This document shows, in pieces, positions 32,747 to 32,943 of a stretch of DNA of 46,159 bases; the stretch's first letter is position 1, and the number at the start of each line of letters is the position of its first letter. The position numbers were made by a program, and so were the translations under genes. The notes under the pieces are model-generated. The model saw only the letters and a list, made by a program, of their open reading frames with translations. It was not told the origin of the DNA and did no database searches. The stretch covers positions 1-46,159 of the forward strand of contig JAKMFL010000079.1 in assembly GCA_022425485.1 (NCBI GenBank), read 5' to 3'. This DNA comes from Alphaproteobacteria bacterium. GTDB taxonomy: Bacteria; Pseudomonadota; Alphaproteobacteria; Puniceispirillales; Puniceispirillaceae.

Positions 32747-32763
32747 ATCTTTTTTTTACTACT

Positions 32764-32778
32764 TTAGAATCATTCTAA
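32764..32778. promoter_or_regulatory. Perfect 7-1-7 palindrome of Irr-box (ICE) type
   Basis: TTAGAATCATTCTAA is a perfect inverted repeat around one central base and matches the TTTAGAA-N3-TTCTAAA pattern described for Irr operators in alphaproteobacteria. It ends five bases before the -35 element of the katG promoter and lies 18 bases after the irr-like gene. Confidence 0.7.
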
Positions 32779-32783
32779 TTTTC

Positions 32784-32812
32784 TTGACCTTGTTTTTGCA
32801 CCTCGCTAGGCT
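32784..32812 (+). promoter_or_regulatory. Candidate katG promoter
   Basis: -35 TTGACC (32784-32789), 17-base spacer, -10 TAGGCT (32807-32812). It is directly downstream of the palindrome at 32764-32778 and gives a leader of about 125 bases before the katG ATG. The -10 is only a partial match. Confidence 0.5.
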
Positions 32813-32943
32813 TGGCATTAGGTAGAGGGAAGAGCTTTCTGGCCTGCCACTAGTTAAAATTTTACTGGTGTTAATCTTGCCATTTACCAAATAACGTTAT
32901 CTTTTAAGTTTTTGACCATTCGAATTTGTCTGAGGAGACAGTT

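What the first reader, a model, noticed from the sequence alone, without database searches (positions are those of the whole stretch)
32747..32943. Irr-type operator adjoining the katG promoter next to irr
A perfect 7-1-7 palindrome TTAGAATCATTCTAA ends five bases before a TTGACC -35 box. An Irr-like regulator is encoded directly upstream and a heme-dependent catalase-peroxidase directly downstream. This suggests that katG, a heme consumer, is tied to iron/heme status by its neighbour.
Basis: partly seen in the sequence, partly recalled or inferred. Interest (0 to 1): 0.6.

Follow-up and report, generated by a model that had tools for sequence, protein, structure and literature searches.

The report
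Irr-box promoter of neighbouring katG
In this marine bacterium the gene for a peroxide-destroying heme enzyme seems to be switched by the iron/heme regulator encoded next door, through a DNA site kept across its relatives but not yet tested in the laboratory.

Summary
In detail: TTAGAATCATTCTAA (32764-32778) ends five bases before TTGACC (32784-32789), between an irr gene (32315-32743) and katG (ATG 32944). Bare perfect 7-1-7 palindromes are not in excess in this window (4 found, 3.76 expected), but this one fits the Irr box, is the only exact copy in the genome, and is conserved. The genome belongs to SAR116 (Puniceispirillales). Of 36 genomes with katG (own included) 34 were examined: 33 have irr directly upstream; in 29 a box lies 13-15 nt before TTGA; in the 4 of one family it overlies the -10/start. 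In an order-wide scan 28 of the 30 sites fetched (of 41) lie between irr and katG. Elsewhere in the class the same plan stands mostly between irr and rubrerythrin, and one genome has irr-box-katG-box-rubrerythrin. The five PerR iron ligands are invariant in 22 aligned Irr proteins; a Cys-Pro heme motif was not seen. Best explanation: Irr represses katG when heme is short and lets go on heme and/or peroxide, a local katG switch. Binding, sign and signal are inferred. New variant of a known kind; earlier prediction in print cannot be excluded, because key 2006 papers were not readable here.

The parts
32315..32746 (+). irr: Fur-family regulator of the Irr group, 143 aa (stop 32744-32746)
   Evidence: Pfam FUR 4.5e-19; best NCBIfam models IrrA 142 bits (cut-off 150) and Irr 130.6 (cut-off 170), next model 66.7; lies with Irr proteins and apart from Fur in the tree
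32763..32779 (.). Irr box, TTTAGAATCATTCTAAT; inner 7-1-7 palindrome 32764-32778
   Evidence: conserved in relatives
32784..32789 (+). -35 element TTGACC
   Evidence: TTGA 13-15 nt from the box centre in 29 of 34 genomes
32807..32812 (+). possible -10 element TAGGCT, spacer 17
   Evidence: weak match; start site not mapped
32932..32937 (+). probable ribosome-binding site GAGGAG
   Evidence: read directly
32944..35097 (+). katG: catalase-peroxidase, 717 aa
   Evidence: NCBIfam catalase/peroxidase HPI 1174 bits, cut-off 770; Pfam peroxidase

Best explanation
The site is an Irr box that makes the katG promoter a direct, probably the only, target of the neighbouring Irr. Shown by comparison: box, -35 and irr-katG order are conserved together, with the box centre about 48 nt before the estimated start. 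Inferred: an Irr dimer without heme binds the box and represses katG by overlapping the -35 region, sparing heme when iron is short; when heme is available, or when hydrogen peroxide oxidises the iron-site histidines as in PerR, Irr lets go and katG is expressed. The enzyme's cofactor (heme) and its substrate (peroxide) would both relieve the same repressor. Estimates: Irr binds the box 0.87; the effect is repression 0.66; heme/iron is a signal 0.65; peroxide is a direct signal 0.45.
For: irr directly upstream of katG in 33 of 34 genomes examined. Box 13 (21 genomes), 14 (7) or 15 (1) nt before TTGA in 29 of 34; positions 2, 3, 6, 12, 15 and 16 of the box invariant in the 32 sites tabulated. 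Order-wide pattern: 41 sites in 40 of 136 genomes (21 of 43 of the good-quality ones), reversed-pattern control 0; of 30 sites fetched 28 lie between irr and katG and 2 inside a coding sequence on the other strand. Class-wide: 14 of 385 genomes (own included), control 0; behind the site lie rubrerythrin next to irr (9), katG next to irr (1, own), sufB (2), a heme catalase (1), a DUF2061 gene (1). L193 carries irr-box-katG-box-rubrerythrin. Repression: the four f3 genomes have the box over the -10/start; 22 of 27 promoters measured read TTGAC at -35; in Rhodobacter sphaeroides Irr binds suf promoter P3 at a box about 50 nt before the start and represses it under iron depletion (PMC6956336, passages), and the heme peroxidase gene ccpA, whose start maps about 40 nt after an Irr-bound box, is 1.8 times higher in the irr mutant under iron limitation (PMC3413700, passages). 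Signal: the five PerR ligands align with invariant H43, D91, H97, H99, D110; Asp rather than Glu at the last is suggested to decide peroxide access (PMC4866751, passages), and the genome's own Fur has Glu there.
Against: I found no binding, expression or mutant data for a SAR116 Irr. The window Irr misses both NCBIfam Irr cut-offs, although the orthologue of G013 (IMCC1322) passes IrrA (165.4 against 150). Irr can also activate, depending on box position (PMC7762939), and near-fixed spacing upstream of -35 is an activator's habit too. The -35 argument is weak: TTGA was required when promoters were picked, so 4 of the 6 letters (mean 5.1) are given by selection, and the start was estimated from the best -10 at spacers 15-19, so the narrow range of -47 to -51 mostly restates the box-to-35 distance. 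In R. sphaeroides isc-suf promoters P1 and P2 were lower, not higher, without Irr, though Irr did not bind them, and katE rose in the irr mutant although Irr did not bind it. In G025, where irr and katG are unlinked, katG keeps a 15-of-17 box without TTGA behind it. Boxes of G007 (13 of 17) and G013 (14 of 17), the cultured strains, are weaker. Palindrome covariation is modest (147 of 184 arm pairs complementary, shuffle mean 139.1; 20 of 2000 shuffles as high). The five ligands are also present in Bradyrhizobium Irr, so they are not special to SAR116.
Confidence: 0.66

Rival explanations
1. Irr bound upstream of -35 activates katG, for instance raising peroxide defence when iron is short.
For: Near-fixed box-to-35 spacing of 13-15 nt; Irr is said to activate directly far more often than Fur or DtxR, depending on box position (PMC7762939, passages).
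Against: f3 box over the -10/start of the orthologous gene; TTGAC at -35 in 22 of 27 promoters (TTGA was a selection criterion); R. sphaeroides suf P3 with a box at a like distance is repressed; making more of a heme enzyme when heme is scarce is uneconomic (inference).
Confidence: 0.22
2. The box is read by another Fur-family protein of the genome (the Fur-like one at C17 or the small one at C10), and irr is next door by chance.
For: Three Fur-family proteins were found; in Magnetospirillum gryphiswaldense Fur binds the katG promoter in vivo (PMC3251581, passages).
Against: The box tracks irr: irr is adjacent at 10 of 14 class hits; upstream of the genome's own fur the best box scores 13 of 17; the recognition helix differs (TIYN in Irr, TVYR in Fur).
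Confidence: 0.07
3. katG is governed mainly by another peroxide regulator such as OxyR and the box contributes little.
For: katE of R. sphaeroides is under OxyR and not bound by Irr although raised in an irr mutant (PMC3413700, passages); two LysR-type matches to the OxyR model exist here.
Against: Neither match reaches the OxyR cut-off (best 46 against 329 bits), but only 1 of 14 control genomes does, so the test is weak; conservation of the box.
Confidence: 0.12
4. The palindrome is a chance or structural feature without regulatory role.
For: As many perfect 7-1-7 palindromes in the window as expected by chance.
Against: Conservation of sequence and position over the 15 genera whose katG promoters were examined, and the order-wide pattern with zero control hits falling almost only between irr and katG.
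Confidence: 0.02

Closest known systems
Irr / iron control element (Irr box) regulation in Rhizobiales and Rhodobacter (mbfA, ccpA, suf P3)
   Same: Like box (R. sphaeroides suf P3 site TTAGAAATATTCTAGA), Irr-group regulator, iron- and peroxide-related targets, box 40-50 nt before the start at ccpA and suf P3.
   Different: Target here is katG beside irr; in this genome no second target was seen by the box pattern, unlike a global iron regulon; no Cys-Pro heme motif seen.
FurA-katG of mycobacteria
   Same: Fur-family repressor gene immediately upstream of katG, proposed PerR-like (PMC2630230, passages).
   Different: FurA binds upstream of its own gene and is co-expressed with katG; here the operator lies between the genes at a separate katG promoter, and the regulator is of the Irr group.
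PerR (peroxide regulator of the Fur family)
   Same: All five PerR iron-site ligands conserved, including Asp104.
   Different: No CXXC zinc motifs (two lone Cys in the window protein); sequence belongs with Irr.
irr-rubrerythrin pairs in other Alphaproteobacteria
   Same: Same box-35 promoter plan directly downstream of irr, before an iron-dependent peroxide scavenger.
   Different: Rubrerythrin (non-heme iron) instead of KatG (heme); box centre 12 or 14 nt before TTGAC in the 9 class loci.

Membership tests
Irr regulator | Sequence closer to Irr models than to Fur, PerR or Zur | tested here: met
   IrrA 142, Irr 130.6 bits; next model 66.7; Fur rows form a separate clade (100) in the tree, which otherwise resolves little
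Irr regulator | Passes the curated NCBIfam cut-off | tested here: not met
   142 against 150 and 130.6 against 170; of five relatives scanned one (G013) passes IrrA, with 165.4. A naming threshold, not a biological feature; I file the protein as Irr group, divergent
Irr regulator | HXH heme/metal motif | tested here: met
   H97-H98-H99 in the window; H97 and H99 invariant in 22 of 22
Irr regulator | Heme binding that ends DNA binding or triggers degradation | not testable with these tools
   No Cys-Pro in the 22 aligned stretches, some of which lack the N-terminus; this makes a Bradyrhizobium-type degradation route unlikely
Irr box promoter | Palindrome TTAGAAT-N-ATTCTAA at the promoter | tested here: met
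   consensus partly recalled
Irr box promoter | Bound by Irr | not testable with these tools
   needs gel shift or footprint
PerR | His37, Asp85, His91, His93, Asp104 ligands | tested here: met
   aligned with invariant H43, D91, H97, H99, D110
PerR | Two CXXC zinc motifs | tested here: not met
   only Cys68 and Cys95 in the window protein; hence not filed as PerR, though it may work like one
PerR | Peroxide oxidises the ligand histidines and ends DNA binding | not testable with these tools
   for Bradyrhizobium Irr, His63 oxidation is reported in the heme-bound protein (PMC4700492, passages)

The most novel reading that the evidence does not exclude
In the SAR116 order Irr has shrunk from a global iron regulator to a dedicated, PerR-like local switch for katG that senses both the enzyme's cofactor (heme) and its substrate (peroxide); it arose when katG slipped in, with its own copy of the Irr-box promoter, between irr and rubrerythrin, after which rubrerythrin was lost.
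Probability: 0.32. Interest if true: 0.65.

Novelty: new variant of a known kind. Interest (0 to 1): 0.47.

Why it matters
SAR116 bacteria are widespread in surface seawater, where iron is often scarce and peroxide is made by light (general knowledge). A conserved promoter that couples heme supply to peroxide defence would show how they balance the two, and gives a simple two-gene system to ask whether Irr senses peroxide directly. The pairing of irr with an iron-dependent peroxide scavenger in other orders suggests that this local job may be as basic to Irr as global iron control.

Tried and rejected
Tried without result: the generic promoter/terminator scan did not list the katG promoter. 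Other low-mismatch boxes of the own genome (L005-L009) lie in or near genes that by eye are not iron or heme genes, and their number equals the control. Box-like sites before petA were found in 3 of 30 loci examined, all of AT-rich family f4; before fur, sites of 15 or more of 17 in 5 of 23 genomes (three of f4, G034 and G022); single box-like strings in f4 are no commoner than the control and the three f4 genomes are close kin, so I treat these as weak. The petA promoter of the window's own genome was not examined. The rubrerythrin search in 41 relatives found none; the tool warns that this shows nothing without a genome known to match, and the run had none, although the same protein type is found in loci of other orders. 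OxyR search inconclusive. The structure model (mean pLDDT 83.8) matches Fur and PerR structures alike and does not discriminate. In the Irr tree 25 of 56 inner branches fall under 80, the order's Irr proteins are not one clade (starred branches force at least 4 changes) and the Zur-like row has an end branch of 10, so I draw no history from it; this is also a result that a simple vertical story must face.

Considered and rejected: chance palindrome; Fur-read site. Literature: in the listings of eight searches I saw no paper on irr-katG linkage in SAR116. Key papers on Irr boxes (PLoS Comput Biol e163 of 2006; PMC1347296) and on heme-responsive Irr (PMC2871471) are not held, so earlier prediction of some of these sites cannot be excluded. 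The main texts of two SAR116 papers hold no katG or catalase, and the one also searched for Irr has none. All papers cited were seen as passages found by term, none as a whole.

Full report
What is there. Between irr (32315-32743) and katG (32944-35097) lie 200 nt including the irr stop. They hold TTTAGAATCATTCTAAT (32763-32779), whose inner 15 bases are a perfect 7-1-7 palindrome, then TTGACC at 32784, 17 bases and TAGGCT. The upstream gene encodes a Fur-family protein closest to the Irr models of NCBIfam but short of their cut-offs (142 against 150 and 130.6 against 170 bits); the downstream gene is an ordinary catalase-peroxidase. Three Fur-family proteins were found in the genome.

Is it more than chance? 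As a bare palindrome, no: the window has 4 perfect 7-1-7 palindromes against a mean of 3.76 in 50 shuffles. As a site, yes: 1.8% of 5000 shuffled intergenic stretches hold any such palindrome, and it is the only exact match to TTAGAATNATTCTAA in the genome. Beyond that copy there is no clear excess: 6 sites at up to two mismatches against 6 for the reversed pattern, 2 against 0 at up to one; the neighbours of the others are, by eye, not iron or heme genes.

Which organism. Relative G013 has a contig of 2,753,527 bp, the stated length of the single chromosome of 'Candidatus Puniceispirillum marinum' IMCC1322, and G007 (2.5 Mb, 10 contigs), in the window's genus, fits HIMB100 (2,458,945 bp, 10 contigs) (PMC3368413, passages). 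Both are SAR116, which forms the order Puniceispirillales (PMC12262181, passages).

Conservation. Matches to the window Irr were found in 38 of 41 genomes (own included; some of these are only Fur-level matches) and to KatG in 36 of 41. I examined 34 of the 36 katG upstream regions. irr lies directly upstream in 33 (in G026 only a fragment of irr was aligned); in G025 the two are apart. In 29 of 34 a box stands 13 (21 genomes), 14 (7) or 15 (1) nt, centre to first T, before a TTGA. In the four genomes of family f3 an ATTAGAATNATTCTAAT box instead lies 33-34 nt after a TTGA and so overlies the -10/start. G025 keeps a 15-of-17 box without TTGA. Over 32 sites tabulated six positions never vary. 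In 27 promoters measured the box centre lies 47-51 nt before the estimated start; this rests on choosing the best -10 at spacers of 15-19, and the -35 mean of 5.1 of 6 letters includes the four that were required for selection; 22 of 27 read TTGAC. Palindromic symmetry is above shuffles but modestly so (147 of 184 arm pairs, mean 139.1; 20 of 2000 shuffles as high). In 3000 shuffles of the own intergenic stretch a box of at least 12 of 17 with TTGA 12-15 nt behind it came up 41 times, and a best score of 15 five times.

Almost only at irr-katG in the order. The pattern TTTARAAYNATTCYAAN{5,6}TTGA gave 41 sites in 40 of 136 genomes (21 of 43 among those at least 90% complete and at most 5% contaminated) and none for the reversed pattern. 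Thirty loci were fetched: 28 lie between irr (aligned end 10-140 nt upstream) and katG (start 90-182 nt downstream); the two others are in a coding sequence on the opposite strand. The 96 genomes without a match include ones with variant boxes (for instance G007 and G013) and incomplete ones, so 40 of 136 counts this strict pattern, not the promoter.

Beyond the order. In 385 genomes of the class (own included) the pattern TTAGAATNATTCTAAN{4,6}TTGAC matched in 14, control 0. Behind it lie rubrerythrin right after irr in 9, katG after irr in the window's own genome, sufB in 2, a heme catalase in 1 and a DUF2061 gene in 1; in these last four no irr was seen in the 3-kb locus. Of 80 named irr loci, 3 have katG next to irr (L138, L170, L193), each with a box of at least 15 of 17, and 9 have rubrerythrin within the locus; of these 9, five have a box of 15 or 16 downstream of irr (L193, L195, L209, L210, L216), three only 13-14 (L165, L204, L205) and one none (L144 Thalassobaculum). 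The other 69 loci, many of them Rhizobiales by name and some with short flanks, showed neither gene. L193, an uncultured alphaproteobacterium, is the telling case: irr, box-TTGAC, katG, a second box (14 of 17)-TTGAC, rubrerythrin. No rubrerythrin match was found in 41 relatives of the window, in a run without positive control. I infer that irr beside an iron-dependent peroxide scavenger is a recurrent plan and that SAR116 uses KatG in that seat; which came first is not shown.

The regulator. The five residues that bind the regulatory iron in PerR (His37, Asp85, His91, His93, Asp104) align with H43, D91, H97, H99 and D110 of the window Irr, invariant in the 22 proteins aligned. Asp at the last place, in contrast to Glu in Fur, has been suggested to decide access of peroxide (PMC4866751, passages); the genome's own Fur has Glu. 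The same five are present in Bradyrhizobium Irr, where the site, loaded from heme, oxidises its own His63 (PMC4700492, passages), so they mark Irr in general, not SAR116. No Cys-Pro was seen in the 22 aligned stretches, so heme-triggered degradation of the Bradyrhizobium type is unlikely; loss of DNA binding on heme, as described for Rhizobium (PMC7762939, passages), or peroxide oxidation are the open routes. The tree separates Irr from Fur but resolves little within Irr and does not make the order's Irr proteins one clade; a structure model fits the Fur fold and does not separate Fur from PerR.

Direction. I favour repression because the f3 box would block RNA polymerase outright, the -35 is usually good, and the two closest measured precedents, R. 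sphaeroides suf P3 and the heme peroxidase gene ccpA with boxes 40-50 nt before the start, are repressed by Irr or higher without it under iron limitation (PMC6956336; PMC3413700). Against this, Irr can activate depending on position, fixed spacing upstream of -35 is also an activator's habit, and in the same R. sphaeroides study P1 and P2 fell without Irr, though without binding. R. sphaeroides also warns that catalase can change in an irr mutant without Irr binding (katE).

Comparison. It works like FurA-katG of mycobacteria (PMC2630230, passages) and like PerR control of peroxide defence, but belongs by sequence to the Irr group, with the operator at a separate katG promoter between the genes. 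It is not PerR by membership (no CXXC motifs). Irr boxes and Irr control of peroxide genes are known; irr-katG as a conserved, seemingly one-target circuit of an order, and its exchange with rubrerythrin on one promoter plan, I did not see in the listings of the searches named, but the key 2006 papers could not be read.

Noticed in passing
L193:4001-7337 (Alphaproteobacteria bacterium isolate new MAG-146): irr, box-TTGAC, katG, second box-TTGAC, rubrerythrin in a row: both scavengers behind like Irr-box promoters.
   Followed up: partly
L059, L062, L065, L069 (family f3: G035, G026, G038, G029): Same palindrome before katG but overlying the -10/start instead of lying upstream of -35; Irr there is 33-37% identical to the window's in the two aligned (L059, L065).
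   Followed up: partly
L276 (G106), gene starting shortly after the site: Irr-box-35 promoter before a heme catalase gene (Pfam Catalase), no irr seen in the locus.
   Followed up: partly
L268, L269 (G194, G063): Irr-box-35 promoter before sufB in two small genomes (L268 by Pfam, L269 by eye).
   Followed up: partly
L277 (G079): Irr-box-35 promoter before a DUF2061 membrane protein and a 144-aa protein that looked globin-like by eye but matched no Pfam family.
   Followed up: partly
L218-L220; L126, L127, L134 (family f4); L263 (G034): Box-like sites before petA (Rieske, after hemF) and before fur in three close relatives, and before fur in G034; weak evidence in AT-rich genomes.
   Followed up: partly
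L131 and L130 (G025): irr unlinked from katG, beside a fabA-like gene (named by eye), without a box of 14 or more; its katG keeps a 15-of-17 box.
   Followed up: partly
L271:2116-3024: A protein with a cysteine-rich CCG domain, probably Fe-S, follows rubrerythrin; similar frames follow in the other irr-rubrerythrin loci by eye.
   Followed up: no
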